From NCBI RefSeq assembly GCF_025717515.1, contig NZ_JAJIRN010000001.1, positions 434,001 through 498,000 of the forward strand: a DNA stretch of 64,000 nucleotides, read 5' to 3'. Both the position numbers and the translations under genes were made by a program. Below the pieces are notes generated by a model. The model saw only the letters and a list, made by a program, of their open reading frames with translations. It did no database searches and was not told the DNA's origin. The first letter of the stretch is position 1, and each line of letters begins with the position of its first letter. The DNA comes from Roseateles oligotrophus. GTDB lineage: Bacteria; Pseudomonadota; Gammaproteobacteria; Burkholderiales; Burkholderiaceae_C. Positions 3,687 through 21,912 of this stretch are shown here, one piece after another.

Positions 3687-3731
3687 TCGCCGGCCCTGAT
3701 TGTTTTTTAGCGAAGACCAGAAAGAATCCCC

Positions 3732-7933: not shown

Positions 7934-7948
7934 GCCCGTTCTCGCGCC

Positions 7949-8335
7949 ATGCAAGGCCTGCACCTGTGCGCCGATTTGAGCGGTGTTCGCGCCGATCTGC
8001 CGGAGATGCTCGATCCCGCCGCGCTGCAAGCAATCTGCGTGGCAGCGGTGGCGCAGGCCGGCTTGGGCGCGGTGGCCGAGTTGTTTCACCGCTTCGTTCC
8101 TGCGCCGGGCGAAACGCAGTCCGGCATCACCGGCGTCGTGCTCTTGGCCGAGTCGCATCTGGCCGTTCACACCTGGCCCGAACTGGGTGGCGTGACGCTG
8201 GATGTCTATGTCTGCAATATGGGCCAGGACAATAGTTCCCGTGCGCAGGCCTTGATGGCGCGCCTGATCAGCGCTTTCGCACCCGAACAGGTGCAGCAGC
8301 AGGCGCTGCAGCGCGGCGGGCTGGCGCAGATTTAG
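7949..8335 (+). CDS. speH: S-adenosylmethionine decarboxylase proenzyme (SpeH type)
   Basis: A 128-residue pyruvoyl-dependent enzyme of the short bacterial/archaeal class. It makes decarboxylated AdoMet, the aminopropyl donor for spermidine. Self-cleavage is expected before S69 in the block LAESHLAVHTWPE, which creates the pyruvoyl group. The expected processing histidine is H74 and the catalytic cysteine is C89 in VDVYVCNMG-like context. The first ATG is 15 bases after moaD, so it is probably the last cistron of the hom-thrC-moeA-moaD operon, but I see no good ribosome binding site. Its last 68 bases overlap the 3' end of the convergent soxR gene. A membrane aminopropyltransferase that could use its product lies at 11567-13144. 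Confidence 0.9.
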   Translation: MQGLHLCADLSGVRADLPEMLDPAALQAICVAAVAQAGLGAVAELFHRFVPAPGETQSGITGVVLLAESHLAVHTWPELGGVTLDVYVCNMGQDNSSRAQALMARLISAFAPEQVQQQALQRGGLAQI

Positions 8336-8876
8336 CGGCCTCGGCCATCACCTTCGCCGCGCTGTCGCCGATCAAGTAGCGCGCGCCCGCGCCGGCCTTG
8401 CCGGCCGCGTCTGCGGGGTTGTAGAGCGCGCATTTGCTCAGCGACAAGCAGCCGCAGCCAATGCATGAGCTCAAGGTGTCGCGCAGCCTAGTCAACTCTG
8501 CAATGCGCTGGTCCAGGATTGGGCGCCAGGACGTCGACAGGCGCTGCCAGTCGGCCGGGGTCGGCGTGCGCCCCTCGGGCAATTCGGCCAAGGCGGCGCG
8601 AATCTGCTCCAGGCTCAAACCGACCGTTTGCGCCGCGCGAATAAAAGCCAGTCGGCGCAAGTCGCCTCGCGCATAGTGGCGCCGGCCGCCTTGTTTGCTT
8701 TCACTTGCGCTGCGCTGGCTGCTCAGCAGCCCCTGCTCTTCATAAAAGCGCAGCGCACTGGCGGCCACGCCACTGCGTTTGACCAAGTCGCCGATCGTCA
8801 GCCGGGTCTCGGCCGCTGCCGTCTTTGATGCGCTCTTTGATGTGGCTTTTGATGTGGAGTCTGGCTTGTTGGACAT
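8268..8876 (-). CDS. soxR: Redox-sensitive MerR-family regulator SoxR
   Basis: A 202-residue transcription factor. The helix-turn-helix is at about 25-50 (LTIGDLVKRSGVAASALRFYEE-like, with wing GGRRHYARGDLRRL). A dimerisation helix follows, then the [2Fe-2S] cluster site with C138, C141, C143 and C149 in CIGCGCLSLSKC, the SoxR-specific CX2CXCX5C. It is longer than enteric SoxR. It has a Ser/Thr/Lys-rich N-terminal arm of about 24 residues and an Ala/Arg-rich tail of about 45 residues, and the tail overlaps the convergent speH. Oxidation of the cluster by redox-cycling agents normally activates the protein. A matching operator lies 22 bases upstream, shared with the divergent questin-oxidase-like gene. 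Confidence 0.93.
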   Translation of the reverse strand: MSNKPDSTSKATSKSASKTAAAETRLTIGDLVKRSGVAASALRFYEEQGLLSSQRSASESKQGGRRHYARGDLRRLAFIRAAQTVGLSLEQIRAALAELPEGRTPTPADWQRLSTSWRPILDQRIAELTRLRDTLSSCIGCGCLSLSKCALYNPADAAGKAGAGARYLIGDSAAKVMAEAAKSAPARRAAAPAAAPVRVRKR

Positions 8877-8892
8877 GGTTCGAAAAAATCGC

Positions 8893-8926: not shown

Positions 8927-8953
8927 GGCCTTGCTACCTTAATCAAGCGCATC

Positions 8954-9979: not shown

Positions 9980-9991
9980 AATGGGTGATCT

Positions 9992-11566
9992 CTAACGGCG
10001 GCCGAGGCGGGCCGCCAGCTTTGAGGCCAAGTCGAAGCCCTGCGTATAAGCCTCCTCAAACACCGAGTAGCCGGCCAGATCGCTGTGCGCGAAATGCAAC
10101 CGGCCTTGTGGCTGCTGAAGCGCGCTGAGCGCCGCCGAGCCACGCAGCCCCGGCACAGGGATGCTCATCGCGTGGCCCCAGCGCACCAGATCGGCGCGCT
10201 CGATCTGGCCAAGCAGATCGGGGTGAACCGGCATCAAGTCGGCCAATATCTGCCTCAGCCAATGCCGCCAGTCTTGTCGAAGCAGCTCGCCGCGCCGTGC
10301 TTGAGGCAGCGCCCAGTAGGCGCTCAGCACGGTCGCACCGGCCTGCGGTTTGAGGCTCTGGTGCATCGCATCGACATAGCCCAAGCCCTGGCTGGCGTAG
10401 ATCACATTGTCCCAGGCAGGCGGCGCGCCGCTGCGCTGCAAGAGCGGGCCTTTCAGCTGCAGATTGGCGACCAGCCAGGGGGCATAACGCATTTGTTCGG
10501 CGGCGGCCTTCAGTGGCGCGAGGCCTTGGCCCAGCAGCTTGTTGGCGATGAAAAGCGGTGTGGCCAGCACCAGCTGCTCGGCCTGCCAGCGCTCGGCGCT
10601 CTGCCTCGCTTCGTTCCAGACCAGGAGCTCAACCTGATGTTTGCCCGACTCCACCCTCAAGACGCTGCGGCCGCGGTGGATCTGCGCCGTCACCGGGGCC
10701 GCGATCGCGTCGGTCAAAAACGCGTTGCCCTGCGGCCAGGTCAGCACCGCTTCGCGCTCGGCGCTCGAGCCTGCCGGATGAAAGCCGTGGCGGCTGGCAA
10801 AGTAATGCAGCCCCGCCCAGGCCGACACATCTTGTAGGCCGGCGCCATAGTCATCCCGGCAGCAGTAGTCCAGATACCAGCGCAGATGCGGGTCGCTCAG
10901 CCCTTGACTTGTCAACCAGGCGGCAAAGCTTTGGCCGTCCAAGGCGGCATGGCCCGGCGTCCAAGGTGCGCGGCGCGTCGGCATGGCGAAGCCCAACTGC
11001 GCCTGCGCGGCCTCGACGGCGCGTTCGAACAAGCGCTGTTGTGCTTGTGCCGAGGCGGTCTGCGCCGGTGGCAGCAAACCGTCATGCCAGGCAGCGTCAA
11101 AAAACAGCCGCTCCTGCGGGCTGTGGCAGAGGTGGCGCTCGTCCCAGACCGGGCGGCCGAGTCGCTGCCGCACCAGCCCCAACTCTTCAAGCAGTTGGTA
11201 CACCTCGTGCGAATGCGGGCCGGGCAGAGGGAGGTAATGCGCGCCGGTCGGGCAGACCATGCCGCCCATTTTGTGAGCGCGACTATTGCCTCCGACCTCG
11301 TCCTCCAACTCCAGGAGCGCGAAGTCGGCTATGCCGGCCTGGCTCAAACCTCTTGCGCAGGCAAGACCTGACACCCCCGCCCCGATGATCAGCACCTGGG
11401 TTCGTCGCAGCGGGCCATCGCCTGCCTTTGGTGGCTCAGCGCGCAGGCGGTGGCCGCGTTCGGCATGGGCGCCACCGACCCAGCCGCCCGCCGTTTCTGC
11501 AAGGGGTGCCTCACAGCCCGCCAGCAGCAGCGAAGCGCTGCCCATCAATAATTCACGCCGCCGCAC
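9992..11566 (-). CDS. Exported FAD-dependent amine-oxidase-like oxidoreductase (lipoprotein)
   Basis: A 524-residue flavoprotein. The N-terminus MRRRELLMG followed by ASLLLAGC combines twin arginines with a lipobox (C18), so a Tat-exported lipoprotein is likely. The FAD Rossmann motif VLIIGAGVSGLACARGL is at about 58-74, with an acidic residue at its strand end (LLELEDEVGGNSR). The C-terminal FAD block ends HSDLAGYSVFEEAYTQG. The overall plan is that of flavin monoamine/polyamine oxidases. The start is GTG at 11564-11566, directly abutting the stop of the membrane aminopropyltransferase gene without a spacer, so the two are co-translated. A polyamine or other amine substrate is suggested only by this context. 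Confidence 0.8.
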   Translation of the reverse strand: MRRRELLMGSASLLLAGCEAPLAETAGGWVGGAHAERGHRLRAEPPKAGDGPLRRTQVLIIGAGVSGLACARGLSQAGIADFALLELEDEVGGNSRAHKMGGMVCPTGAHYLPLPGPHSHEVYQLLEELGLVRQRLGRPVWDERHLCHSPQERLFFDAAWHDGLLPPAQTASAQAQQRLFERAVEAAQAQLGFAMPTRRAPWTPGHAALDGQSFAAWLTSQGLSDPHLRWYLDYCCRDDYGAGLQDVSAWAGLHYFASRHGFHPAGSSAEREAVLTWPQGNAFLTDAIAAPVTAQIHRGRSVLRVESGKHQVELLVWNEARQSAERWQAEQLVLATPLFIANKLLGQGLAPLKAAAEQMRYAPWLVANLQLKGPLLQRSGAPPAWDNVIYASQGLGYVDAMHQSLKPQAGATVLSAYWALPQARRGELLRQDWRHWLRQILADLMPVHPDLLGQIERADLVRWGHAMSIPVPGLRGSAALSALQQPQGRLHFAHSDLAGYSVFEEAYTQGFDLASKLAARLGRR

Positions 11567-13144
11567 TCAATGCACCTTGCCCCATTCCGCCTCGAACTCA
11601 TGCACCAGTTGCTGGTTCGACAGGCGGTTCACCTCGGTCGGCAGGCGCGCCATATCGGGCGGAAAATTCATCAGCGCGGGCAGGCCGGCCAGGTCCAGAA
11701 ACTTCAGCCCGGCGGGCAGCGCGCGCGGCGGCGCCCAGGGGCGCCGGCCGGCCAGCACAAAGCCCCATTCGCCAAAGCTGGGCACATGGGCGTGGTAGGG
11801 GGTCGTCGTCAGGCCGACTGCCTCCAGCGTGCTGACCACGGTCCAGAAGCTGCGCCTGGCGATCAAGGGCGAGGTGGTCTGCACCACCGCGTAGCCGCCG
11901 GCCGTCAGATGCTGGTCAATCAGCTGATAGAAGCTCGTCGTGTAGAGCTTGCCCAGCGCGAAATTGCTGGGGTCGGGGAAGTCGATCACGATCACATCAA
12001 AATGCCCGGCCTGCTGCTCCAGCCAGCCGAAAGCATCGGCGTTGACGATCTTCAGCTTCGGCGAAAGCAGCGCGTCGCCGTTGAGCTGGCGCAGCAGGGG
12101 CAGGGTCGAGAACAGCCGCGTCATATGCGGGTCCAGCTCGACCAGGGTGACGCTTTGCACGCTCGGGTAACGCAATACCTCCCGCACCGCCATGCCGTCG
12201 CCGCCGCCCAAGATCAAAACATTTTTCGGCGCGCCATGGCCGGCCATCGCCGGATGCACCAAGGCCTCGTGATAGCGGTATTCGTCCTTGGAATGGAATT
12301 GCAGATTGCCGTTCAGGAACAGACGCACGCCCGCATTGCCCTGGGTGACGACGACGCGCTGATAGTCCGAACTCTCGCGCAGCAGGATGTGCTCGCCGTA
12401 GAAACGGTCCTCGGCCCAGCTCGTCAGTCGGTCGGCGCCCAGCATCGCCGCCAATAGCAGGCCGAAGCTGGCGGCGCAGGCCAAGGCATGGCCGCGCCAG
12501 GCCCGCAGTTGTGAGCGAAATAGCCACAGCGCCCAGATCGCCACCAGTACATTCAAAAGCCCGAAGAACAGGCCCGTGCGCACCAGACCCAGATGGGGCA
12601 CCAGCAGCAGCGGGAAGGCCAAGGCCACGACCAGGGCGCCAAGGTAGTCAAATGTCAGCACCTGCGAGACCAGATCGCCCAGCTCATAGCGCTTACTGAA
12701 CTGCTTTTTGAGAATGCGCATGACCAGCGGAATTTCCAGCCCGACCAAGGCGCCGACCAGCAGCACCAGGCCGTAAAGCAGCACTCGAAAGGCCGCCAGC
12801 TGGCCCGGCGGCAAGAGACTGTGGGCAAGAAAAAGCGCGGCCGGCATCAACCCGCCCACCAAGCCCACCAGCAACTCGATTTTCAGAAACTGCGCGACCA
12901 ACTGGCGCCTCAGATAGCGGCTCAGCCAGGAGCCCAGCCCCATCGCAAACAGATAAGTGCCGATGATGGTGGAGAACTGCAGGACCGAGTCACCGAGCAG
13001 GTAACTGGCCAGCGCACCGGCCGTCAGCTCATAGACCAGACCGCAGGCGGCGATGACGAAGACGCTGGCGAGCAGCAGCAACTCGGGCAGGGAGATGCGG
13101 CTTGCGTCGATTTCTGAGTTGCTGGATGGGGCGGAAGGTGACAT
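11567..13144 (-). CDS. Membrane-bound polyamine aminopropyltransferase-like protein (spermidine synthase fold)
   Basis: A 525-residue two-part protein. From about residue 18 to 225 there are some seven hydrophobic segments (for example LLLLASVFVIAACGLVYELT and IEIPLVMRILKK-like loops). The C-terminal half is a spermidine-synthase methyltransferase fold with LFLNGNLQFHSKDEYRYHEALVHP, the AdoMet loop ILGGGDGMAVREVL, the acidic VELDP and IVIDFPDPSN. These match aminopropyltransferase active-site blocks. The ATG at 13144 is preferred to the open extension to 13246, which lacks conserved sequence. It likely uses decarboxylated AdoMet from SpeH. The real acceptor amine, and whether the membrane part transports or anchors, are unknown. 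Confidence 0.85.
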   Translation of the reverse strand: MSPSAPSSNSEIDASRISLPELLLLASVFVIAACGLVYELTAGALASYLLGDSVLQFSTIIGTYLFAMGLGSWLSRYLRRQLVAQFLKIELLVGLVGGLMPAALFLAHSLLPPGQLAAFRVLLYGLVLLVGALVGLEIPLVMRILKKQFSKRYELGDLVSQVLTFDYLGALVVALAFPLLLVPHLGLVRTGLFFGLLNVLVAIWALWLFRSQLRAWRGHALACAASFGLLLAAMLGADRLTSWAEDRFYGEHILLRESSDYQRVVVTQGNAGVRLFLNGNLQFHSKDEYRYHEALVHPAMAGHGAPKNVLILGGGDGMAVREVLRYPSVQSVTLVELDPHMTRLFSTLPLLRQLNGDALLSPKLKIVNADAFGWLEQQAGHFDVIVIDFPDPSNFALGKLYTTSFYQLIDQHLTAGGYAVVQTTSPLIARRSFWTVVSTLEAVGLTTTPYHAHVPSFGEWGFVLAGRRPWAPPRALPAGLKFLDLAGLPALMNFPPDMARLPTEVNRLSNQQLVHEFEAEWGKVH

Positions 13145-13246
13145 GAGGGCGAGCTTAGCCGAAGCTGCTGATTGGCTACATTCTTCTGCTCGTCGACCTC
13201 TTCCCTGCGCTTGTCGTGCAGCGAGCTTTGCTTGCCTGCGCCGCAC

Positions 13247-13705
13247 TCAAGGTCGGTGACCGGGGCTTGTTGGCCGCGCTTGATTTGTCAGTGGAACCGA
13301 CTCGGCCGCTAAAAGACCTTCGGCACGAGACGTCAAGATGCAAGCGACGAATATCGCGGCTGTCACATCAAAGGTCAGACAGAACCCTGGCCAGCCCTGC
13401 GGCACACCGCTGTTGTGAACCAGCTTGTGATGAAAGAAGTCCATCACGCCGTGCCCGGCAAGTGCGGCGACAAGCAGCCACAAATTGCGCTTGAAGCCGA
13501 GCAAGGCGACGACCGTGAATACGGCCGAAATGGCGAGCTCGGACAGCAGCACTTGCTTGTCGCCATCAATCACCGCGAACAAGACGTAATAGGTGGCGAT
13601 GACGATCATCATCGCCGGGTAGAACACTCGGTCTCGGTCCATGGCCAGCAGATGGGCGCCGCCGCAGACAGCTAGCGCAAGGGCGATGCCCACGAAAAAT
13701 TCCAT
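13247..13705 (-). CDS. Small multi-pass membrane protein of unknown function
   Basis: A 152-residue protein starting MEFFVGIALALAVCGGAHLL, with four hydrophobic stretches and a short polar tail. A conserved-looking loop, HGVMDFFHHKLVHN, contains several His and one Asp and could bind metal; that is inference. I do not recognise the family with certainty. It lies 40 bases downstream of the di-haem peroxidase gene in the same direction. The open frame upstream to 13765 overlaps that gene and has no membrane or signal features, so the ATG at 13703-13705 is used. Confidence 0.7.
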   Translation of the reverse strand: MEFFVGIALALAVCGGAHLLAMDRDRVFYPAMMIVIATYYVLFAVIDGDKQVLLSELAISAVFTVVALLGFKRNLWLLVAALAGHGVMDFFHHKLVHNSGVPQGWPGFCLTFDVTAAIFVACILTSRAEGLLAAESVPLTNQARPTSPGHRP

Positions 13706-13745
13706 AGCTTGTTCTCCAGTTGGTAGCCAATGAGCTTGCGGGCAC

Positions 13746-15056
13746 TTATCTTTTTGGGGCGTCAAGAATCGGGCCCGACAGCGTCGCGAGAAAGTCCGCC
13801 AAGTCCTTGATCTCTTGCTCGTTCAGCTGGATCGGCTGGCGCTCGCTTGGTGTTCCGGCGCGGCCCTTGGCGGCGCTGCTCAGTTCCGACCGCCCGATGA
13901 CGGCGGCCGGCGCCTTCACATAGTGATTGATGACCTCCGCGATGGTCTTGAATTGGCCTGCATGCATATAGGGAGGCCGCAAGCTCACATTGCGCAAGCT
14001 CGGTGTCTTGAACGCGCCGTCCAAGGCCGGGTCGGTGCTGACCATGAAACGCAGCTCCTGGCATTGCTCCGGCGCGGCGTCACTGAAGCGGCCGAGGCAA
14101 TTGAACTCATCTTGCTGCACCTTGGCCAGCGCACTTGCGCGGCCATGGTCGGGCCGGCTGGGGTCGCGTTGTGGCACCGCCGTGTTGTGGAAATGCTGGT
14201 CGGTGAATAGCGGGCCGTTGTGGCAGCTCACGCATTGCCCCTTGCCGATGAATATGCGCAGGCCCTGGATCTCTTGCGCTGTCAGGTCTTGCTGGGCGCT
14301 TGCGTCCCCCAGCAAGTTGCCGACAACGTAGCGATCAAAGCGCGATTCGCCGTGGATCAGCGTCTTTTCGTAGGCCGCAATCGCCTTGCCCATATTGGCG
14401 AAAACGCGGCTGACCTCGGCTTGCGCTTTGCCGTCCATCCGCCGCCAGGCGGCTTGTTCGGCCGGCATTCCCAGCGGCCCGGCGTCTTGCGGCAAGGCGC
14501 TCAGATCGGGCATGGGCTTGAAGATCGCCTCATAGTCGGCGCGGTAATGGGCTTGCAGCAGATGGGCGTAGCGGCTGCGGTTACCGCCATGTTCGACGGC
14601 GTCTTCCAGCGGGCCCAGCGCCTGCGACCAGAGGCTGTCTTTGCGGCCGTCCCAGAACAACCAGGGGCTGTGCGCGCTGCCGACAATTGGCATCGCCCGC
14701 CTTGCGCCGAGGCCGACACCGCGCCCAAGTGGCAGTCCGTCCTGGAATTGCTTGTTCGCGTCGTGGCAGCTGGCGCATGACACCGCCTGGTTCTGGCTGA
14801 AGCGAACATCATTGAAGAGGCGCCGGCCCAGCTCAATGGCTGCGGGCGAACCCTCCACCGCATTCGACGAATCTGCCGGCGTGGGTGGCAAATTTTTGAG
14901 CTGCAGAGAGGCCAACAGGTCGAGCTCCGCTGGGCTCCACGGTGCCCGCACGCTGAGGGCTTGATGCTGGGGTCCGGCACTGAATCCGCTCAGCAGCGAG
15001 GCTGCGACGAGAAGCAGCGGGCCGAGTACGAGGCTTGTTGAAATGGCTTTGCGCAT
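13746..15056 (-). CDS. Di-haem cytochrome c peroxidase (MauG/CcpA family)
   Basis: A 436-residue periplasmic protein with a signal peptide (hydrophobic residues 9-25). It has two c-type haem sites, CASCH (94-98) and CVSCH (275-279). Flanking blocks FNDVRFSQNQAVSCASCH, GKGQCVSCHNGPLF, FKTPSLRNVSLRPPYMH and the distal-methionine region are those of bacterial di-haem peroxidases and MauG relatives. Classical members reduce H2O2 with electrons from cytochrome c; MauG relatives oxidise protein side chains. Which applies here cannot be told. It is preceded by a FixH-like lipoprotein gene and followed by a small membrane protein gene, probably as one operon. Confidence 0.9.
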   Translation of the reverse strand: MRKAISTSLVLGPLLLVAASLLSGFSAGPQHQALSVRAPWSPAELDLLASLQLKNLPPTPADSSNAVEGSPAAIELGRRLFNDVRFSQNQAVSCASCHDANKQFQDGLPLGRGVGLGARRAMPIVGSAHSPWLFWDGRKDSLWSQALGPLEDAVEHGGNRSRYAHLLQAHYRADYEAIFKPMPDLSALPQDAGPLGMPAEQAAWRRMDGKAQAEVSRVFANMGKAIAAYEKTLIHGESRFDRYVVGNLLGDASAQQDLTAQEIQGLRIFIGKGQCVSCHNGPLFTDQHFHNTAVPQRDPSRPDHGRASALAKVQQDEFNCLGRFSDAAPEQCQELRFMVSTDPALDGAFKTPSLRNVSLRPPYMHAGQFKTIAEVINHYVKAPAAVIGRSELSSAAKGRAGTPSERQPIQLNEQEIKDLADFLATLSGPILDAPKR

Positions 15057-15086
15057 GAGGCTTCCTCGGTGCTTGAAGAGCGTCAG

Positions 15087-15524
15087 TTAGCGCGCTGCCG
15101 CGGGCGTCGCGACGATGGTGTTGAAGCTCACCTGGTCGGCGCCGCCTCCTTCACTGTGGATGGCCAGCTTGATTTCCCACCAGCCGCTCATGCTGAACTT
15201 CATGCCTTCCAGCAAATAGATACCGTCAGCCAACTCTCGCGTGACCTGCGGGCGAGTGGGCAGACCGTGGCCATGCTGCGGCATGCCGCCGTCCACCGCA
15301 ATCTCCGCATGCGTGATTGGCCGGCCGTCTGCTGTTGTCAGTTTGATTTGCCAGGTATGGATCTGATTGATCGCTGCCGCCTTGGCGGGCGGCTGCAGCG
15401 CGACGATGAATTTGCCTTCGGCCGTTGGGCGAGTCAGTGCGAGATTCAGATCGTCCGGGGGAGCCGCGCAAGCGGCGATGCCGAAGGCAGCGAGCAGCGA
15501 GAGCTTGGAAATGATGCGGTACAT
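15087..15524 (-). CDS. FixH/YtkA-like lipoprotein
   Basis: A 145-residue protein starting MYRIISKLSLLAAFGIAAC, with a lipobox cysteine at C19, so it is probably anchored in the envelope. The mature part has an immunoglobulin-like beta pattern. HTWQIKLTTADGRPITHAEIAVDGGMPQHGHG and YLLEGMKFSMSGWWEIKL-type strands match FixH/YtkA domains. The GGMPQHGHG segment has Met and two His that could bind copper; that is inference. It is the first gene of the unit leading into the di-haem peroxidase (30-base gap). The open frame upstream to 15578 lacks a signal and is rejected. Confidence 0.72.
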   Translation of the reverse strand: MYRIISKLSLLAAFGIAACAAPPDDLNLALTRPTAEGKFIVALQPPAKAAAINQIHTWQIKLTTADGRPITHAEIAVDGGMPQHGHGLPTRPQVTRELADGIYLLEGMKFSMSGWWEIKLAIHSEGGGADQVSFNTIVATPAAAR

Positions 15525-15876
15525 GGTGAGGTCTCCAAAAGGTGTGAGGGCAAGCGGCGAAGGCGAAATGCCTGGCACCGAGCTGGACTTTCGTCGGTGC
15601 CGCTGGCTGGCGATAGCGACTTGTGATCAGCCGTTCCGCGCCGTCCCTGACTGGTGCTGATTGGCGCTTGAGTGGTCAAGGCGCCCGACCGCCCGGTGCC
15701 AATATGGCTTGGCCCGCTGCGGGGCTTGCTTGCCAAAACCATTCGGTCGCCAAGCGCAACCGTTCCGGCATTGCCGCCAACAGCCCGTCTCAAATAGCTG
15801 TTGGCATGGAGCCATCGCAGCGAAAGTCCAGTCATCGAAGACATCCCGTCTTCGATTCACCCAAAGGAAGCAAATC
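15525..15876. promoter_or_regulatory. Divergent control region with perfect hairpin before the metallothionein-like gene
   Basis: This 352-base gap separates the FixH-like gene (leftward) from the metallothionein-like gene (rightward). The clearest element is ATCGAAGAC-ATCCC-GTCTTCGAT at 15834-15856, nine perfect pairs around a five-base loop. It ends nine bases before the AAAGGAAG ribosome binding site of the Cys-rich peptide. GCACCGA (15575-15581) and TCGGTGC (15594-15600) form a second dyad in the leader of the FixH-like gene. An imperfect dyad spans 15661-15686. I find no clear -35/-10 pair. Confidence 0.6.
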
Positions 15877-16029
15877 ATGAACGATACAAATCAAAGCCCT
15901 TGCCGCTGTGCGACTTGCCCTGGCTCTGCCTGCCGCTGCGGTTGCCAGCAGCCCAGCACCGCGCCACAGACCTGCGCCTGCGGTCCGCAATGCCCATGTG
16001 GCCCGGCTTGCGCCTGCCCCAAAAACTGA
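15877..16029 (+). CDS. Small Cys-rich metallothionein-like protein
   Basis: A 50-residue peptide with 12 cysteines, at 9, 11, 14, 19, 21, 23, 33, 35, 39, 41, 45 and 47. They are arranged as CxC and CxxxC pairs in two halves split by a Pro/Thr/Gln linker (24-32). No aromatic residues or histidines occur. This composition is that of a metallothionein, with CxC spacing favouring Cu(I), Zn or Cd thiolate clusters; the metal is inference. The ATG at 15877 follows AAAGGAAG by a good distance. The open frame reaching back to 15661 is rejected as non-coding. The next gene (HD domain) starts nine bases after the stop, so they form an operon. Confidence 0.8.
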   Translation: MNDTNQSPCRCATCPGSACRCGCQQPSTAPQTCACGPQCPCGPACACPKN

Positions 16030-16038
16030 AGAAATCTG

Positions 16039-16806
16039 ATGGGCATCGGTACTCTGGACTGGACCCGGCGCGGCGGTATGTTGACGCTCAATGAGCGCTG
16101 GCGACTGACCCTGGCGGCAATCGGCAAGCGGGCGCGCCTGCATAAAGCGGCGCGGGCAGGCGAGACTCCCGCTGCGCTCAAGCTGCTCGACCGGCTGGGC
16201 TTGGGCGCCCTCGATTACATCGAGCAGCCTTGGGATGCGCTCGCCTTTGCCGCCTCAACCGCCGCACAAGAGCTGCAGCCGCAGTGGTTGAGCAACCATG
16301 GCTGGCGGACCTATGCCTGGGGCACCTTGCTGGCGCTTGATGGTAATCTGGAATACGACAAAAACCTCTTCTTTGCGGCTTGCATGTTGCACGACCTTGG
16401 TCTGACTCCCCATGCTGCCCAGCCGGCCGATCAATGCTTTACGCTGCGCAGCGCTCTTGCGGCTCGCAGCATTCTTCAGCGTGCCGGCGCGTCCCCGGCG
16501 CAGCTGGATTGCGTGGCGCAAGCGATCACCCTGCATCCCAATCTTGAGGTCGGCATCGAGCAAGGTGTGGAGGCGCATCTCTTGCAGGCCGGTGCTGCCT
16601 TCGATGTGGTCGGGCAGCGCAGCCATGAGCTGCCGGCAGCGCTGCAGGCGGGTGTGCTGGGCCGGCACCCACGCCTGGGTTTCAAGCAATCGTTTTGCGC
16701 CTGCATGCAGATGCAGGCGCAGGCAACGCCGAACTCGCGCATGGGCTTGTATGTGCGTCGCCTGGGTTTCCTAACTCTGATTCAGCAAGCACCTTTTGAC
16801 GAGTAG
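16039..16806 (+). CDS. HD-domain hydrolase, cyanamide-hydratase-like
   Basis: A 255-residue soluble protein with an HD phosphohydrolase fold. H87 in NHGWRTYAWG, H118-D119 in ACMLHDLGL and the His in AITLHPN form the metal-binding set. The pattern NH(x)R...LHDLGL is close to cyanamide hydratase-like and related HD proteins of unknown substrate. The C-terminal half has FDVVGQR and LPAALQAGVLGRHPRLGFKQ-like helices. It is co-transcribed with the 12-cysteine peptide nine bases upstream, so a metal-linked or nitrile/cyanamide detoxification role is conceivable but unproven. It converges with the LytTR regulator gene. Confidence 0.78.
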   Translation: MGIGTLDWTRRGGMLTLNERWRLTLAAIGKRARLHKAARAGETPAALKLLDRLGLGALDYIEQPWDALAFAASTAAQELQPQWLSNHGWRTYAWGTLLALDGNLEYDKNLFFAACMLHDLGLTPHAAQPADQCFTLRSALAARSILQRAGASPAQLDCVAQAITLHPNLEVGIEQGVEAHLLQAGAAFDVVGQRSHELPAALQAGVLGRHPRLGFKQSFCACMQMQAQATPNSRMGLYVRRLGFLTLIQQAPFDE

Positions 16807-16857
16807 CGCCATTCGAGTGGGGCCCAAGCTGGGTCATTTCTGGCGCGAGCAGCGGCT

Positions 16858-17679
16858 CTACATCGGCCGGAACAGGTAGCTAAACGCGCGGCTGACCTTG
16901 ATGGGGCGCTGCAGCCCGCGCAGCGTCAAGCTGTAATGCCCGATTTCGTCGCGCGTCGCGCTGAGGATGCAGTTGAAGTTGACGAGCACGCTGCGGTGCA
17001 CTTGCTTGAAATCGCTGGTGTCTATTCTGGCCGTGAGCTCACGCAGGCTCATGCGCACCAGCGCCTCGCCGGTCGCGGTGACGACATTCACATATTTTTC
17101 GGTGGCCTCGAAACAAATGACCTCGGCGACCGGAATCATCCGGACGGTGTTGCCGACGCCCGCTCGAATAACCTTGATCCGCTCCGGTGCTTCTTTCTCT
17201 TCCATTTCCTCTGCGGACGCGGACAGTGTCTGTACCTTTTGCATCAAAGCGCCCATTTCACCCGTAGCGGGCGACTCGGCACGCTCACCGAGCCGGCGTT
17301 TGAGTCGCTCAACGCTAGACCTCAAGCGCTCGGCGGTGACCGGCTTGAGCAAATAGTCGACCGCCGAGTGCTCGAACGCGGCGATGGCAAATTCGTCATA
17401 GGCCGTGACGAAGACAAACAGCGGTTCCGCCTTGTCGCCCGGCCAATCGTCGGCGACCACCTCCGCCACTTCCAGACCGGTCTTGCCGGGCATCTTGATG
17501 TCGAGAAACATGATGTCGGGCGCTTGTTCGAGTGCCAGCTCAATGGCGGAGAGCCCATCCTCGGCAACGGCGATCACTCGCAGTTCGGGCCAGACCTCGG
17601 CCAGTAAACGCGACAAGGTTCTGGCGAGTACCGGCTCATCTTCGGCGATGAGGGCACTTGGCCTAGCTTCTGTATTCAT
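16858..17679 (-). CDS. LytTR-family response regulator
   Basis: A 273-residue regulator with an N-terminal receiver domain. The acidic pair is in IAEDE (11-15), the phospho-acceptor is D60 in IMFLDIKMPG, and the switch residues lie in FVTAYDEFAIAAFEHSAVDYLLKP. A linker of about 40 residues precedes the C-terminal LytTR DNA-binding domain, with VIPVAEVICFEATEKYVNV-like strands, LRELTARI and FKQVHRSVLVN. It is the AlgR/LytR type. The ATG at 17677-17679 overlaps the kinase stop by four bases (ATGA), so the two are translationally coupled. The longer open frame to 17937 lies inside the kinase gene and is rejected. Confidence 0.93.
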   Translation of the reverse strand: MNTEARPSALIAEDEPVLARTLSRLLAEVWPELRVIAVAEDGLSAIELALEQAPDIMFLDIKMPGKTGLEVAEVVADDWPGDKAEPLFVFVTAYDEFAIAAFEHSAVDYLLKPVTAERLRSSVERLKRRLGERAESPATGEMGALMQKVQTLSASAEEMEEKEAPERIKVIRAGVGNTVRMIPVAEVICFEATEKYVNVVTATGEALVRMSLRELTARIDTSDFKQVHRSVLVNFNCILSATRDEIGHYSLTLRGLQRPIKVSRAFSYLFRPM

Positions 17680-18770
17680 TGGGGAATCCTTACGCTGGCA
17701 CAAAGGCCGGTCGGTGTTTGAGGCATCAGTGTCAAGCTGGCGCGTGGCCCGTAGGCGGCAAGCAGGCGTTCCCGCACATGCTGCAAGCCATAGCTGGCGT
17801 TGGGCCCCTGCGCCAGCGCCCTGGCCGCGCCTTCGGCTGATAGGCCCAGGCCGGTGTCGGTCACCGAAATCTCGACCCCCGCCACAACCCCCGCTTCCAG
17901 CCCAAGGTCGACACGCCGCGCGCGCACCTCGATGCACCCCGCGCCGACCTTGGGTTCGAGCCCATGCTTGATGGCGTTCTCGACCAAGGGTTGCAGCAGC
18001 ATTGGCGGCAAGGCCATCTGCTCGAGACCGCTGGGCAGATCGAGCCGGTAGCTCAGGCGCGGCCCCATGCGCACCGACATGATGTCCAGGTAGGCGCGCA
18101 ATTGCGCGAATTCATCCCGCAAGCTGCTGAGTTCCGTTCGGGAGGCCGCCAGCGCGCTGCGCAGGTAAGTAATCAGTTGGTCGATCATGAACTCGGCCTG
18201 CCGCGAATCTTCGCTGACCAGGGAGCGCAGGTTGGCCAGCGTGTTGAACAGCATATGCGGCTCCAACTGGGCGCGCAGCAGGCGCAGCTCGAACTCGGTC
18301 GCCAGACGCTGGGCTTCGGAGCGCGCTGCGGCCTCGTTCGCGAGGCGCTCGCGGCTGGCAAAGTAGTGCAGGCCGAAGCCGGCAATCAGCAGCGTGAAGA
18401 CGATGGGCAGCAGTCTGTCCTGGCCCGGACTCATGACTCGAAAGGGCTCGCCAAGCATCACGAGTGCCAGCACATGGCCGGCCACATAGCCCGCCGGGAT
18501 GGCGATGATGCCGGTCAGTGCCCAGCCCAACGTAGATCCGATGTTTGGAAACCAGCGCGAGGTCCTGAGCAGCATCGCAGTGCCCACGATGCCCATGCCG
18601 ACACATTCACTGAATACGAGCAGCCGGCCCCAACTGTCCACGCCCGGCGCAGCGATGAACAGCACGCTGGCCGCCAAGGCCCAGAACAAGGCCGAGCCCA
18701 GGGTCAGGCGCAGCAGACCCTGCCAGGTCTTGGGCGTCGGCCGAGTGTTGGCGGTAGTAAGGTGAGACAT
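17676..18770 (-). CDS. LytS/AlgZ-type sensor histidine kinase
   Basis: A 364-residue membrane kinase. Four hydrophobic segments fall at about 26-42, 50-68, 82-106 and 121-137. The cytoplasmic His_kinase block LRAQLEPHMLFNTLANLRSL has the phospho-accepting H172. The ATPase part shows MLLQPLVENAIKHGLEP (N box), VTDTGLGLS (G1) and GLQHVRERLLAAYG (G2). It phosphorylates the LytTR regulator encoded by the overlapping downstream gene. No periplasmic ligand domain is seen, so membrane state or a small ligand is the likely input; that is inference. The next genes on the same strand upstream are DUF350, DUF4178 and SPFH genes, 228 bases away. Confidence 0.92.
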   Translation of the reverse strand: MSHLTTANTRPTPKTWQGLLRLTLGSALFWALAASVLFIAAPGVDSWGRLLVFSECVGMGIVGTAMLLRTSRWFPNIGSTLGWALTGIIAIPAGYVAGHVLALVMLGEPFRVMSPGQDRLLPIVFTLLIAGFGLHYFASRERLANEAAARSEAQRLATEFELRLLRAQLEPHMLFNTLANLRSLVSEDSRQAEFMIDQLITYLRSALAASRTELSSLRDEFAQLRAYLDIMSVRMGPRLSYRLDLPSGLEQMALPPMLLQPLVENAIKHGLEPKVGAGCIEVRARRVDLGLEAGVVAGVEISVTDTGLGLSAEGAARALAQGPNASYGLQHVRERLLAAYGPRASLTLMPQTPTGLCASVRIPQ

Positions 18771-18997
18771 GCCGCGCTATTCCTGAAGAAGACCGCTTCG
18801 CGCGGTGGCCGAGATCTTGCAGAACAAAAAATACAACAAGAGTCGTTGGCACTTTAGGTGCTGGGCCTTGATCTGCCTATTGCGCCTCGCCCCGCCGCTC
18901 GGAATCTGTCCTTGAATGGTCGATTGAGGGCTCCAAACGGCGAGCCGGCATCCTTTTTCGCGTCCAGCCCCACTTCACTCGTCGCACGCATTCGCCT

Positions 18998-19222
18998 TCA
19001 GCCGTGAATCGCGGCGGCCACGATCAGCCCGATCGAGATGCACATGGACGCCACCACGATGGCCAGTGCCAAGTTCTTCTGCTCGACGATTTCTTCCCAG
19101 AGTTTGTAGGGCGTCAATTTGTCGATGATGACAAAGCTGATCCAGAACACTAGCACGCCGATGACGGCATACAAGATCGAACCCAGCACGACGGCCGGGC
19201 GCAGCCATTCAAATCCATTCAT
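18998..19222 (-). CDS. DUF350 small membrane protein
   Basis: A 74-residue protein with two transmembrane segments (about 10-32 and 52-72), starting MNGFEWLRPAVVLGS. The N-terminal FEWL, the FWISFVIIDKLTPYKLWEEI block and the EQKNLALAIVVASMCISIGLI block match DUF350 (YjfL-like) proteins, although only one repeat is present. An AAGGAGATC ribosome binding site precedes the ATG at 19222. Its function is unknown. The family recurs beside DUF4178, SPFH and polyamine genes, as here. The longer open frame to 19414 overlaps the DUF4178 gene and is rejected. Confidence 0.82.
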   Translation of the reverse strand: MNGFEWLRPAVVLGSILYAVIGVLVFWISFVIIDKLTPYKLWEEIVEQKNLALAIVVASMCISIGLIVAAAIHG

Positions 19223-19259
19223 AACGATCTCCTTGAATGCATAAATTCGTTTGCAGCGT

Positions 19260-20870
19260 TCATTTGTGGCCTCCGCCGCCACTGCCCGAGCCGCCGTAAG
19301 AGCCGCCGCTGTAACTGCCGCCACCGGGGTAGATGCGCGGGCCGCCGCTGCGCTTGCACTGCGCGTACTCGCTGCTGGCTTCTCCGAAATTGTCTTTATA
19401 GGCTTGGCAGTCATCGCTCTGGCTGCTGCAGGACTTCACCAGCATGAAGAGGAAAAACAGAGCGAACAGACCGAGGATGAAATTGCGAACAAAGCGCGGG
19501 TTGCTGCCGCTCAGGCTGGCAACATCGCGCGTCAGCGCTTCGCCAGGGGCGCCGTCCAACTTGAAGGCCTTGGCAACTTCACTGGCATCGAGCTTGCGCC
19601 CGAAACTCCATGTCACTTCGTCCGCGGTTTGTTCGCGGCTGAGCAGGGCGCCGGAGTTGCCCTGCGCTCCTTCGTAGTCGCTCACCAAGGCCTGCTGCTC
19701 GCGGTCGACCTGCCAGTAAAACTCGCCCAGCACATAAGTAACCTTGGCTCGATAGCTCCAGCGTTTCTTGAAGCTCTTGCCCTGCCATTCGACCTTGTCT
19801 CCGCTGCCTTGCGGCGCACCGGTCAGCGGCCGCACCAAACTCCAGCCTTCCTCGGTGTCAACCAGGAAGGCGAAGCCCTCGGTCTTGTTGAAGAGCAGGT
19901 ATTCGCGCCAGAAGGTCTGCTCGTCGTCGCTGCCCGCCACGGGCAGGTCGCAACGTTCCTGATAGCCGACCACCTGCCAGGGCAGGGCGGCGCCGCCGCT
20001 GACCGCCAAGCGGCCGACGGAGCCCAGGGCAATCTGCGGCTCGCGCCCATTCGCTTGCGCATAATGTGCCAGGTCGGCGCCCACGCCCTGCGAGATGTCC
20101 ACCACCGCATGGCATTGGCCGCAGACTATTGCTTTGCTGTTGGCCAGCTGCGGCGTCAGCGCGGCGCCGCAACTCGGGCATTCGATGGCGCGCGAGGCGA
20201 GGCCGGTGTCTTTGTCTTCCCGCAGGCCCTGCATGGCCAACTCTTCAAGGCGCACCGCGCGGCCCAGCGACCATTGCGCGCCGCTGGTCTGCCCATAGTC
20301 CAGCGTGCCGACCTCGTCCTGCGCGTTGCGCAGCTCGGCGACCCAATGCTCGCCTTGCAAGTCGGGCGGGCGCGGCAGTTCCCCTTGCGCGGCCAAGACT
20401 CGGGCGAGGGTGAGTGCGGCGACACGCCAGCTCTGGCCGGCCAAGACGATCAAGTCCCCCAAAACCAGCTCATGCGACTGCGGCACGGCCTCGCTCAGCG
20501 GGGCATCAAAGCTCAGCACGAACTGGCCGTTATCCTCGCTCAGCCAGCCACTTTTACCCGAATCGAACAGTGCATGCCATTCATTCCAGCTGCCGCCGCT
20601 GTAGCCGATTTGCAGACGCCCGACGATGCTGAAGGGCTCGCTGCTGAAGCGCCCGCTCGCACCGAGTTGCAGCGCCGAGTAGTCGTTCAGCAAGTCGGCG
20701 CTGACGCCGATCTTGCGCAGCGCCGAGCCCTCGCGCAGCAGGCAGCTGCGGCAGAAGCTGCAGACGGCGCTGGCCGAGGCCGCCGACGCGAACTCGACGG
20801 TCGCACCGCAGTTCGGGCAGGCCGCGCTCCAGCGGCGCTGGCTTGAGTCGGGTGAGCCGGTTTGAGTCAA
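19260..20870 (-). CDS. DUF4178 protein with two zinc ribbons and Gly-rich C-terminal tail
   Basis: A 536-residue protein with alternating modules. A zinc ribbon, CPNCGATVEF...CSFCRSC, falls at about 18-43 and is followed by a DUF4178 domain (about 60-200; LQIGYSGGSWNEWHALFD). A second ribbon, CPSCGAALTP...CGQCHAV, is at about 245-280 and is followed by a second DUF4178 domain (about 290-420; QVVGYQERC...FWREYLLFNKTEGFAFLV). A hydrophobic segment (FILGLFALFFLFML) then leads to a Ser/Gly/Tyr tail ending GGSGSGGGGHK. The domain is uncharacterised. It probably binds membranes or proteins. It lies between DUF350 and the SPFH gene, with seven bases to the latter, so they form one operon. Confidence 0.85.
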   Translation of the reverse strand: MTQTGSPDSSQRRWSAACPNCGATVEFASAASASAVCSFCRSCLLREGSALRKIGVSADLLNDYSALQLGASGRFSSEPFSIVGRLQIGYSGGSWNEWHALFDSGKSGWLSEDNGQFVLSFDAPLSEAVPQSHELVLGDLIVLAGQSWRVAALTLARVLAAQGELPRPPDLQGEHWVAELRNAQDEVGTLDYGQTSGAQWSLGRAVRLEELAMQGLREDKDTGLASRAIECPSCGAALTPQLANSKAIVCGQCHAVVDISQGVGADLAHYAQANGREPQIALGSVGRLAVSGGAALPWQVVGYQERCDLPVAGSDDEQTFWREYLLFNKTEGFAFLVDTEEGWSLVRPLTGAPQGSGDKVEWQGKSFKKRWSYRAKVTYVLGEFYWQVDREQQALVSDYEGAQGNSGALLSREQTADEVTWSFGRKLDASEVAKAFKLDGAPGEALTRDVASLSGSNPRFVRNFILGLFALFFLFMLVKSCSSQSDDCQAYKDNFGEASSEYAQCKRSGGPRIYPGGGSYSGGSYGGSGSGGGGHK

Positions 20871-20877
20871 CGGCGGC

Positions 20878-21912
20878 TCAACCCAGTTTCTTCAGCAGTT
20901 CGGCCTTCTTGGCGGCGAATTCCTCGTCGGTCAGGATGCCCTTGGTCTTGAGGTCGCCGAGCTTTTCCAGCAAGGCCATGATGTCCTCGGCGCTTTGAGG
21001 CCCCGTGATGGGCGCCGCAGCGGCATGGCCCGCCAGGCCGGCTTGCAATTGCTGGGCCATCACCTGACCCATGGCAAGACCTGCCCCCAGGCCCATCGCG
21101 TCGCCGGCCACGCCGCTGCCACCACCACCGGCCGCACCTTCGGCAAACTTGGGGATCGCCTGCGCGGTCTGGTACTGCATGAACTGGCCCATGTTCTGGC
21201 CGATCATGCCCATGCCGATTTTCTGATCCAGCACCTTCTGCAACTCCTCGGGCAGCGAGACGTTTTGCAGCGTCACGCTCTCCAGCTTGAGGCCGATCTT
21301 CTCGAACTCGGGCGCGGTGACGGTTTGCAATTGCTTGGCAAACTCGATCTGGTTGGCCGCCAAATCGAGGAAGGGAATGCCGGCCTGCGCGACCGCGTCG
21401 CTGATATGTTGCAGCATCATGCCGCGCAGTTGGCCGTCCAGGTCCGACACCGAGTAGCGCTCGCGCGTGCCCGAGATTTGGGTGTGGAACTGCTTGGCGT
21501 CGGCGATTCGGTAGGCGAAGTTGCCGAAGGCGCGCAGGCGCACGGCGCCAAAGTCCTTGTCCCGAATCGTCACCGGCTGCTGCGTGCCCCAGCGCTGATC
21601 GATCTGCTGGCGGCTGCTGAAGAAATAGACATCGCTTTTGAACGGCGACTCGAACAACTTGTCCCAGTTCTTCAGATAGGTCAGCACCGGCAAGGTTTGG
21701 GTCGTCAATTTGTACATGCCGGGGCCGAATACATCGGCGACCTTGCCCTCATTGACGAAGACGGCGATCTGCGATTCACGCACGGTCAGCGAGGCGCCAT
21801 GCTGGATTTCCATCTCGGCCATGGGGAAGCGCCAGGCCAGCGTACCGTCGGAGTCCTCGGTCCACTGAATAATGTCTATGAACTGTTTCTTGATGAAGTC
21901 CATCAGTCCCAT
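20878..21912 (-). CDS. SPFH/Band-7 protein with C-terminal SHOCT domain
   Basis: A 344-residue protein starting MGLMDFIKKQFIDIIQWTED. The SPFH-type region (about 25-215) has VFGPGMYKLTT, IRDKDFGAVRLRAFGNFAYRI and a coiled IEFAKQLQTVTAPEFEKIGL segment. A Gly/Ala-rich, weakly hydrophobic stretch (about 245-305) follows. The end is a SHOCT helix pair, DIMALLEKLGDLKTKGILTDEEFAAKKAELLKK. Related proteins were once named virion core protein-like, and some assemble into membrane-associated rings. It leads the DUF4178-DUF350 operon. The ATG at 21910-21912 has a GGGAGAACG ribosome site. The open frame to 22434 is the shadow of moaE. Confidence 0.87.
   Translation of the reverse strand: MGLMDFIKKQFIDIIQWTEDSDGTLAWRFPMAEMEIQHGASLTVRESQIAVFVNEGKVADVFGPGMYKLTTQTLPVLTYLKNWDKLFESPFKSDVYFFSSRQQIDQRWGTQQPVTIRDKDFGAVRLRAFGNFAYRIADAKQFHTQISGTRERYSVSDLDGQLRGMMLQHISDAVAQAGIPFLDLAANQIEFAKQLQTVTAPEFEKIGLKLESVTLQNVSLPEELQKVLDQKIGMGMIGQNMGQFMQYQTAQAIPKFAEGAAGGGGSGVAGDAMGLGAGLAMGQVMAQQLQAGLAGHAAAAPITGPQSAEDIMALLEKLGDLKTKGILTDEEFAAKKAELLKKLG

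What the first reader, a model, noticed from the sequence alone, without database searches (positions are those of the whole stretch)
7949..21912. Split polyamine and membrane-stress gene set: speH, exported flavoprotein, membrane aminopropyltransferase, DUF350, DUF4178 and SPFH-SHOCT
Within 14 kb lie an AdoMet decarboxylase, a membrane-embedded aminopropyltransferase, an abutting Tat/lipobox amine-oxidase-like flavoprotein, and an SPFH-DUF4178-DUF350 operon beside a LytS/LytTR pair. As I recall, DUF350, DUF4178 and spermidine-synthase-like genes tend to travel together in other bacteria, with no worked-out mechanism. Here they could make and oxidise a modified amine at the membrane, with SPFH/DUF4178 proteins as scaffold. 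The set is interrupted by redox and metal genes, which may be functionally related or incidental.
Basis: partly seen in the sequence, partly recalled or inferred. Interest (0 to 1): 0.7.

Follow-up and report, generated by a model that had tools for sequence, protein, structure and literature searches.

The report
Split membrane aminopropylation operon
These genes belong to one conserved bacterial operon, broken in this genome by extra unrelated genes, that probably attaches an aminopropyl group to something in the cell envelope instead of making the usual polyamine spermidine; the link is partly published, but the side of the membrane the enzyme faces and one of its partners look new and are easy to test.

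Summary
All named genes are present. SPFH-SHOCT, DUF4178, half-length DUF350, membrane aminopropyltransferase (APT) and an exported flavoprotein form one conserved operon; AdoMet decarboxylase lies nearby or elsewhere. Of 100 genomes sampled from the same family, 54 hold all four of SPFH, DUF4178, DUF350 and APT, and 53 of 55 APT genomes hold the flavoprotein. The closest named relative found has the operon intact: where the window has 5.9 kb (LytSR, HD, YtkA, MauG) it has 486 bp. So the "split" is most simply an insertion, and the redox and metal genes are incidental.

The AdoMetDC / 7TM-spermidine-synthase / DUF350 / DUF4178 association is in print (PMC11237479, passages; Li et al. 2019, cited there, not read). 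Three things I found in no held paper: the flavoprotein as a near-constant partner in this family; a DUF4178 C-terminus fixed as GGxHK (51 of 51 family loci); and an APT with seven predicted TM helices whose charge pattern puts the catalytic domain in the periplasm (141 of 141 sequences).

Best reading: an envelope aminopropylation module, not spermidine synthesis; acceptor unknown. "Amine oxidase" is weak: the catalytic-lysine position is Arg in 106 of 117 flavoproteins. New variant of a known kind.

The parts
7949..8335 (+). speH/AdoMet decarboxylase, class 1b (128 aa); likely pyruvoyl Ser69, with His74 and Cys89
   Evidence: PF02675 and TIGR03330 over cut-off; Ser69 and Cys89 in 63 of 63 aligned, His74 in 59 of 63; catalytic roles recalled from class 1b AdoMetDC
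9992..11566 (-). probably exported flavoprotein (524 aa): RR and lipobox N-terminus, FAD-binding, amine-oxidase superfamily
   Evidence: PF01593; profile matches MAO-B, putrescine oxidase, LSD1; lipobox-like motif in 42 and RR/KR in 44 of 49; present in 53 of 55 APT genomes of the family sample
11567..13144 (-). membrane aminopropyltransferase: seven TM helices, then a spermidine-synthase-fold domain; likely ATG at 13144 (residue numbers in this report count from 13150, two codons upstream)
   Evidence: NF002956 676 bits; AlphaFold model mean pLDDT 90.2, pTM 0.77; best PDB matches include 1uir and 6bq2
18998..19222 (-). half-length DUF350 membrane protein (about 74 aa, two TM)
   Evidence: PF03994 over cut-off; hydrophobicity
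19260..20870 (-). DUF4178 protein (536 aa): ribbon-DUF4178-ribbon-DUF4178-TM-Gly/Ser tail ending GGHK
   Evidence: PF13785, two domains; model mean pLDDT 84.9, tail under 50; tail conserved
20878..21912 (-). SPFH/Band_7_1 protein with C-terminal SHOCT (344 aa)
   Evidence: PF13421 and PF09851 over cut-off
13100..18996 (.). extra block between DUF350 and APT (TM protein, MauG-like, YtkA, Cys-rich small ORF, HD protein, LytTR, LytS); not part of the system
   Evidence: blastn with L167 (Paucibacter sp. Y2R2-4): collinear on both sides, 486 bp in place of this stretch; in the 54 family loci (stretches of up to 20 kb around the operon) tblastn found only lytR-like hits of 33-37% in three

Best explanation
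The set is one module for aminopropylation in the cell envelope, of a published but functionally open type, split in this genome by an extra block. Shown by sequence: AdoMet decarboxylase, expected to make decarboxylated AdoMet (dcAdoMet), co-occurs with a seven-TM protein that carries an aminopropyltransferase domain with intact motifs. In this bacterial family that protein is nearly always accompanied by a half-DUF350, a double-DUF4178 protein, an SPFH-SHOCT protein and a probably exported flavoprotein. Inferred: dcAdoMet is used by the membrane enzyme to aminopropylate an acceptor other than putrescine, at or beyond the inner membrane. The flavoprotein acts on the product or on its partner proteins on the periplasmic side. 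SPFH, DUF4178 and DUF350 form the membrane-bound assembly that positions or regulates the enzyme in response to envelope stress.
For: Family sample of 100 genomes (G000 plus 99): APT 55, DUF350 55, DUF4178 54, AdoMetDC 55 over their cut-offs; SPFH, DUF4178, DUF350 and APT together in 54. Flavoprotein (E 1e-30 or better): in 53 of 55 APT genomes. The two misses, G008 and G040, are 65% and 74% complete, and G008 has a copy cut at a contig end. The only match without an over-cut-off APT is G016, whose locus keeps pieces of SPFH, APT and flavoprotein. Kept when not adjacent: in G025, G035 and G083 the flavoprotein is on another contig although the APT contig runs on past the APT; in G094 too, but there the APT contig ends beside it. 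Phylum sample of 249 genomes: DUF4178 in 19, APT in 27; all 19 DUF4178 genomes have the APT on the same contig, 15 of 19 within 3 kb. The flavoprotein profile (E 1e-40 or better) matches 10 of 249; all 10 have APT and DUF4178. Complete same-strand operon with AdoMetDC at its end in G123 and G287 (L157, L166). Donor logic: of 51 family genomes with APT and AdoMetDC, 45 have no second aminopropyltransferase-like match of 100 bits or more, so the membrane enzyme is the evident consumer of dcAdoMet there. The dcAdoMet-site motifs (G[GA]GDG, D390xPD393P, Y293-H294-E295) are conserved. PF01276 decarboxylases (ornithine, lysine or arginine type, recalled) occur in 94 of 100 genomes, so they do not track the APT.
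Against: No acceptor is known and no activity was measured here. Four of 55 APT genomes lack a detected AdoMetDC; three are incomplete (G008, G009, G040: 65, 89, 74%) and one is 97% complete (G061). AdoMetDC is often unlinked: on the APT contig in 36 of 51, within 15 kb in 24. In the six APT genomes with a soluble SpeE-like gene, the only AdoMetDC lies beside or fused to that gene, not beside the APT, so there the donor must be shared. The flavoprotein is absent from 17 of 27 APT genomes of the phylum sample, so it is not essential to every such system; eight of the 27 lack DUF4178 too. A stress role for the SPFH part is by analogy only, and PspA is absent from 47 of 55 APT genomes. That the fusion does not make spermidine is recalled from Li et al. 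2019, not read.
Confidence: 0.6

Rival explanations
1. The aminopropyltransferase domain is cytoplasmic. It aminopropylates a membrane lipid headgroup or a small amine from the inside, and the TM domain flips or exports the product (an MprF-like arrangement).
For: dcAdoMet is made in the cytoplasm; no dcAdoMet exporter is known to me. The TM domain carries near-invariant charged residues (E41, E92, E139, R145, D168) that could bind an amine or a headgroup. A TM bundle fused to a transferase recalls MprF (recalled).
Against: Seven TM helices with K+R of 8.7 in even loops against 1.1 in odd loops (141 of 141 sequences) put the C-terminal domain outside. A cytoplasmic domain needs an even number of TMs or a strong exception to the positive-inside rule.
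Confidence: 0.3
2. An ordinary, membrane-tethered spermidine synthase, with the other genes as envelope neighbours.
For: NF002956 is named polyamine aminopropyltransferase; the fold and motifs match spermidine and thermospermine synthases; AdoMetDC co-occurs.
Against: The top solved matches include enzymes for acceptors larger than putrescine (triamine/agmatine APT, thermospermine synthase). Six APT genomes also have a soluble SpeE-like gene with the genome's only AdoMetDC beside or fused to it, which would make two spermidine synthases. R. pickettii, a betaproteobacterium, is reported to make putrescine and 2-hydroxyputrescine (PMC7857480, passages); whether it has this APT was not checked. 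Li et al. 2019 (recalled, not read) found no complementation of an E. coli speE mutant.
Confidence: 0.1
3. Two separate modules share a locus: an amine-modifying set (AdoMetDC, APT, flavoprotein) and a membrane-stress set (SPFH, DUF4178, DUF350).
For: DUF350 and SPFH occur without the others: SPFH without APT in G067, G079, G086, two of these with PspA; DUF350 in other operons (PMC11237479, passages). The junction between DUF350 and APT carries more than 1.2 kb of other DNA in 25 of 127 loci (24 of 121 after removing loci fetched twice).
Against: DUF4178 was not found without APT in the genomes sampled (0 of 45 family genomes without APT; 19 of 19 DUF4178 genomes have APT in the phylum sample). 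DUF350 is present in 55 of 55 APT genomes.
Confidence: 0.1

Closest known systems
PspA/CesT-Tir operon with 7TM-spermine-synthase fusion, DUF350, DUF4178 and a lipoprotein (PMC11237479, section 19, passages read)
   Same: 7TM-APT fusion, DUF350 and DUF4178 in one operon with a lipoprotein; proposed link of polyamine-type chemistry to membrane dynamics
   Different: No PspA at this locus; an SPFH-SHOCT protein is there instead; DUF350 is a half-length form, against 8TM in that paper; the lipoprotein is a flavoprotein; AdoMetDC belongs to the set
Variant of the glutathionylspermidine-synthetase-like operons with Band-7/SHOCT, AdoMetDC and polyamine oxidase (same paper, passage read)
   Same: Band-7/SHOCT, DUF350, AdoMetDC and an oxidase-like gene together
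   Different: Here a membrane APT and no ATP-grasp ligase among the genes scanned; DUF4178 is present; the SPFH protein has no clear TM segment by hydropathy
AdoMetDC with MFS-spermidine synthase fusion and DUF350 (Li et al. 2019, Biochem J 476:2579; title seen in reference lists, content recalled)
   Same: AdoMetDC class 1b, membrane-fused APT, DUF350
   Different: Whether that paper mentions the flavoprotein, the DUF4178 tail or the topology could not be checked (not held)
B. subtilis pspA-ydjGHI (YdjI SPFH protein; PMC8581546, passages read)
   Same: SPFH protein without TM in an operon with TM partners; B. subtilis has a PF13421 match (control; that it is YdjI is inferred)
   Different: YdjI has a zinc-finger motif near its C-terminus, here SHOCT; PspA is missing from 47 of 55 APT genomes here
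FAD amine and polyamine oxidases (MAO-B, putrescine oxidase, LSD1, SpdH)
   Same: PF01593 superfamily, FAD-binding N-terminus, profile match
   Different: Own set of invariants; position aligned to MAO-B Lys296 is Arg in 106 of 117; N-terminal signal with RR and lipobox

Membership tests
Published 7TM-APT / DUF350 / DUF4178 operon type (PMC11237479) | APT domain fused to 7 TM helices | tested here: met
   NF002956 over cut-off; seven TM helices in the model
Published 7TM-APT / DUF350 / DUF4178 operon type (PMC11237479) | DUF350 and DUF4178 in the same operon | tested here: met
   in relatives DUF4178-DUF350 within 2 kb in 53 of 53, DUF350-APT within 2 kb in 44 of 54 same-contig cases; split by an extra block in the window
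Published 7TM-APT / DUF350 / DUF4178 operon type (PMC11237479) | PspA-CesT/Tir dyad in the operon | tested here: not met
   the genome's one PspA match (43 bits) is on contig C34, the window on C1; 8 of 55 APT genomes have PspA. CesT/Tir was not searched
AdoMet decarboxylase class 1b | family model and active-site Ser/His/Cys | tested here: met
   TIGR03330 79.7 over 75.65; Ser69, His74, Cys89
AdoMet decarboxylase class 1b | activity on AdoMet and not ornithine or arginine | not testable with these tools
   needs enzyme assay; neofunctionalised SpeD homologues exist (PMC10407285, passages)
Aminopropyltransferase / spermidine synthase | fold and dcAdoMet-site motifs | tested here: met
   1uir_A E 3.9e-18, TMt 0.69; G[GA]GDG, D390xPDP, YHE conserved
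Aminopropyltransferase / spermidine synthase | acceptor is putrescine | not testable with these tools
   no assay; indirect evidence against (see rivals)
FAD amine oxidase (MAO/PAO type) | PF01593 and FAD-binding N-terminus | tested here: met
   77.2 bits over 19.8
FAD amine oxidase (MAO/PAO type) | lysine near flavin N5 (MAO-B Lys296; role recalled) | tested here: not met
   profile alignment puts it at window K343; column is R in 106, H in 4, K in 3 of 117. The three with Lys are the window, L070 and L106, so the failure is for the family, not for the window's copy
YdjI-type SPFH protein | PF13421 domain and no TM anchor | tested here: met
   255 bits; no clear TM by hydropathy
YdjI-type SPFH protein | works with PspA | tested here: inconclusive
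   PspA present in the window's genome at 43 bits but absent from 47 of 55 APT genomes; interaction not testable
MFS transporter | 12 TM helices (recalled) | tested here: not met
   seven TM helices

The most novel reading that the evidence does not exclude
The aminopropyltransferase domain works in the periplasm. The seven-TM part carries dcAdoMet across the inner membrane, binding it through near-invariant acids (E41, E92, E139, D168), and the outward-facing domain aminopropylates an envelope acceptor. One candidate acceptor is the conserved GGxHK tail of the DUF4178 protein, which follows a single predicted TM helix. The exported flavoprotein then acts on the modified group. This would be extracytoplasmic aminopropylation driven by a cytoplasmic decarboxylase.
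Probability: 0.35. Interest if true: 0.88.

Novelty: new variant of a known kind. Interest (0 to 1): 0.56.

Why it matters
AdoMetDC and spermidine-synthase-like genes tend to be annotated as spermidine makers. In 45 of 51 sampled genomes here the only strong aminopropyltransferase partner of AdoMetDC is this membrane enzyme, so that annotation may mislead for a large group of environmental bacteria. A PhoA/GFP topology test would decide whether aminopropylation happens outside the cytoplasm, and the conserved HK tail and exported flavoprotein give two defined places to look for the product.

Tried and rejected
Regulation by the neighbouring LytSR pair: rejected, as the pair lies in the extra block and only LytTR hits of 33-37% appear in other loci: three of 54 family loci and three of 80 named loci.

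A PspA link: PspA is not associated with the APT (8 of 11 PspA genomes have it; Fisher p 0.34).

Cysteine depletion as evidence of export: the APT catalytic domain has 18 Cys in 141 sequences (0.04%), and 9 homologous SpeE-like domains have 22 in 1951 residues (1.13%). But the SPFH protein (0.01%) and DUF4178 domain 1 (0.04%), both expected inside, are as poor in Cys, and the flavoprotein, expected outside, is not (1.0%). I keep it as weak support only.

Rfam and tRNA scans of the window found nothing. Literature: one paper in the library holds DUF4178; no paper holds any of six phrases for a periplasmic or membrane aminopropyltransferase. A claim that the flavoprotein, tail and topology are unpublished rests and on a library without most subscription journals.

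Limits: the tests ignore shared ancestry, though the family sample spans 99 genera. Loci L167-L246 are the best 80 of at least 583, so they lean to close relatives. Six genomes were fetched twice under two locus names, so 158 APT loci are 152 distinct; on distinct sequences the charge pattern holds in 135 of 135, and Arg stands at flavoprotein position 343 in 101 of 112. Counts from loci cut by contig ends understate presence.
Full report
What is there. The window is positions 434001-498000 of contig 1 of a 5.76-Mb genome. The closest named relative found is Paucibacter sp. Y2R2-4, with the membrane aminopropyltransferase (APT) 89% identical over its best segment (that tool may leave out records very near the window's own). 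Read from the SPFH gene downwards on the minus strand, the order is SPFH-SHOCT, DUF4178, half-length DUF350, an extra block, the APT and a flavoprotein. On the plus strand AdoMet decarboxylase (speH) lies beyond a questin-oxidase-like gene and a MerR gene, next to moaD and moeA.

One system, not neighbours. In 100 genomes drawn from the same family (the window's genome plus 99, in 99 genera), matches over the family cut-off are APT 55, DUF350 55, DUF4178 54, Band_7_1 58 and AdoMetDC 55. Fifty-four genomes hold all of SPFH, DUF4178, DUF350 and APT; 50 of these also hold AdoMetDC. None of the 45 genomes without an APT over the cut-off has DUF350 or DUF4178 over the cut-off; four of them have AdoMetDC, three of those beside or fused to a SpeE-like gene. 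The one APT genome without DUF4178, G090, has the APT on a 5.9-kb contig that begins just before DUF350. Gaps between neighbours are small: SPFH to DUF4178 under 2 kb in 52 of 53 same-contig cases, DUF4178 to DUF350 in 53 of 53, DUF350 to APT in 44 of 54.

The flavoprotein belongs. A homologue of the window's flavoprotein (E 1e-30 or better) is in 54 of 100 family genomes: 53 of the 55 APT genomes and G016. The two misses are incomplete assemblies (65% and 74%), one with a copy cut at the contig end. G016 keeps only pieces of flavoprotein, APT and SPFH, the last two next to each other, as a deletion through the operon would leave. In G025, G035 and G083 the flavoprotein is on another contig although the APT contig runs on past the APT, yet it is kept; in G094 it is on another contig too, but there the APT contig ends beside it. 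In the phylum sample (249 genomes) the flavoprotein profile (E 1e-40 or better) matches 10, and all 10 have APT and DUF4178. In that sample 19 genomes have a DUF4178 match (18 over the cut-off), and all 19 have the APT on the same contig, 0.6 to 10.4 kb away. The flavoprotein is absent from 17 of the 27 APT genomes there and DUF4178 from eight, so these partners define subtypes.

Where AdoMetDC stands. In G123 and G287 one same-strand run holds AdoMetDC, flavoprotein, APT, DUF350, two DUF4178 genes and SPFH (L157, L166). Of the 23 phylum loci read, 11 have an AdoMetDC match. In the family, AdoMetDC is on the APT contig in 36 of 51 and within 15 kb in 24. Of the 51 genomes with both, 45 have no second APT-like match of 100 bits or more, so there the evident user of dcAdoMet is the membrane enzyme. 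In the other six, the only AdoMetDC lies beside or fused to a soluble SpeE-like gene, so the donor would be shared. PF01276 decarboxylases, which include putrescine makers (recalled), are in 94 of 100 genomes and do not track the APT. The window's AdoMetDC keeps the expected Ser, His and Cys; the catalytic roles are recalled.

The split. The window and L167 are collinear over 2451-9963, 10028-13099 and 18997-22877, but L167 has 486 bp where the window has 13100-18996, 5.9 kb. The block with the TM protein, MauG-like cytochrome, YtkA, Cys-rich small ORF, HD protein and LytTR/LytS pair is therefore extra in the window relative to L167. With DUF350 and APT adjacent in most relatives, insertion is the simplest reading. 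Of 127 loci with DUF350 and APT on one strand (the window among them), 25 have more than 1.2 kb at this junction, 24 of 121 once loci fetched twice are removed, with differing cargo.

Topology of the enzyme. The AlphaFold model of the APT (43 sequences, mean pLDDT 90.2, pTM 0.77) has seven long helices, 21-52, 55-79, 84-112, 118-151, 157-187, 189-210 and 218-237, then the spermidine-synthase fold, whose best solved matches are Thermus triamine/agmatine aminopropyltransferase and a plant thermospermine synthase. Lys plus Arg in loops 2-3, 4-5 and 6-7 average 8.7 per sequence against 1.1 in loops 1-2, 3-4 and 5-6, with even above odd in 141 of 141 sequences and in 135 of 135 distinct ones. In the 23 phylum loci plus the window, many of them distant, even loops exceed odd ones in 24 of 24. 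By the positive-inside rule the N-terminus is in and, with seven helices, the catalytic domain is out. Cysteine is nearly absent from this domain, unlike in SpeE-like relatives, but SPFH and DUF4178 domain 1, expected inside, are equally poor in it, and the flavoprotein is not, so I give that little weight. Within the TM part E41, E92, E139, R145 and D168 are all but invariant even in distant members. Against the periplasmic reading stands the need to bring dcAdoMet across the membrane; no such carrier is known to me.

DUF4178 protein. It has two CxxC ribbon pairs, two DUF4178 domains, one predicted TM helix and a Gly/Ser-rich tail. In the 54 family loci, all 51 DUF4178 proteins found end in GGxHK; so do 3 of 9 in the phylum loci and 51 of 65 in the named loci, with two more ending HK. 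More distant members (among them Rhodocyclaceae and Acidobacteria) end otherwise, often in acidic residues. A C-terminus fixed to the last residue suggests a functional end: a modification site, a sorting signal or a binding tag. No solved fold was matched, which is inconclusive.

The flavoprotein. It has an RR or KR motif and a lipobox-like motif at the N-terminus (44 and 42 of 49), so it is probably exported and lipid-anchored. It belongs to the amine-oxidase superfamily (PF01593; best profile matches MAO-B, with putrescine oxidase). The column aligned to MAO-B Lys296 is Arg in 106 and Lys in 3 of 117; those three are the window, a genome of its own genus (L070) and L106. I therefore call it a flavoenzyme of that superfamily and leave oxidase open.

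How it most likely works. Shown: co-occurrence, order, intact motifs, seven TM helices in the model. Inferred: AdoMetDC supplies dcAdoMet; the membrane enzyme transfers its aminopropyl group to an acceptor that is not putrescine; the flavoenzyme acts afterwards on the periplasmic side; SPFH, DUF4178 and DUF350 hold the assembly in the membrane. The analogy for the last point is YdjI of B. subtilis, an SPFH protein that recruits PspA to the membrane with two TM partners (PMC8581546, passages). PspA itself is missing from 47 of 55 APT genomes, so here the SPFH protein would serve the APT assembly instead.

What is known. PMC11237479 (passages) describes operons of a 7TM-fused spermidine-synthase-like gene with DUF350, DUF4178, a lipoprotein and a PspA-CesT/Tir dyad, and a Band-7/SHOCT variant of another operon with AdoMetDC and a polyamine oxidase. 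It suggests sensing of polyamines or aminopropylation of other substrates and cites Li et al. [quoted passage not shown] That paper is not held; I recall that it reports AdoMetDC with a membrane-fused spermidine synthase and DUF350, no spermidine, and no complementation of E. coli speE. So the association and the polyamine-independent idea are not new. What I found in no held paper is the near-constant flavoprotein, the fixed HK tail and the outward-facing catalytic domain.

Verdict. A new variant of a known kind. The finding's observation is confirmed and its interpretation partly supported. The interest lies in a cheap topology test that could show aminopropylation outside the cytoplasm.

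Noticed in passing
window 13100-18996; junction in 25 of 127 loci: The stretch between DUF350 and APT holds different cargo in different genomes; in L063, L076, L100 and L202 a similar set of large genes that looks like DNA modification and helicase genes (judged by eye, no family search).
   Followed up: partly
L256 (G016:C79:1-20000), 7491-8346 and 12963-13561: Remnant of the operon: pieces of flavoprotein in several frames, and the first 50 residues of SPFH followed at once by the C-terminal part of APT.
   Followed up: partly
window 15877-16029 (+): 50-residue Cys-rich ORF that looks like a metallothionein (by eye; the longer ORF has no Pfam match).
   Followed up: no
window 16039-16806 (+): HD protein nearest to the cyanamide hydratase family but under its cut-off (54.7 against 109.85 bits).
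   Followed up: no
window 8909-9979 (+): Questin-oxidase-like protein (PF14027) beside a MerR regulator; both also lie in L167 between flavoprotein and speH.
   Followed up: partly
L153, L154, L155, L156 (AdoMetDC genes): Four AdoMetDC homologues carry Ser where the other 59 of 63 have the presumed catalytic His. They lie near an APT and a long DUF350 and may have another activity.
   Followed up: no
G079 and G086: Band_7_1 protein and PspA without APT, fitting a YdjI/PspA pair in the same bacterial family.
   Followed up: no
window 13247-13765 (-): Small membrane protein of the extra block with no Pfam or NCBIfam match.
   Followed up: no
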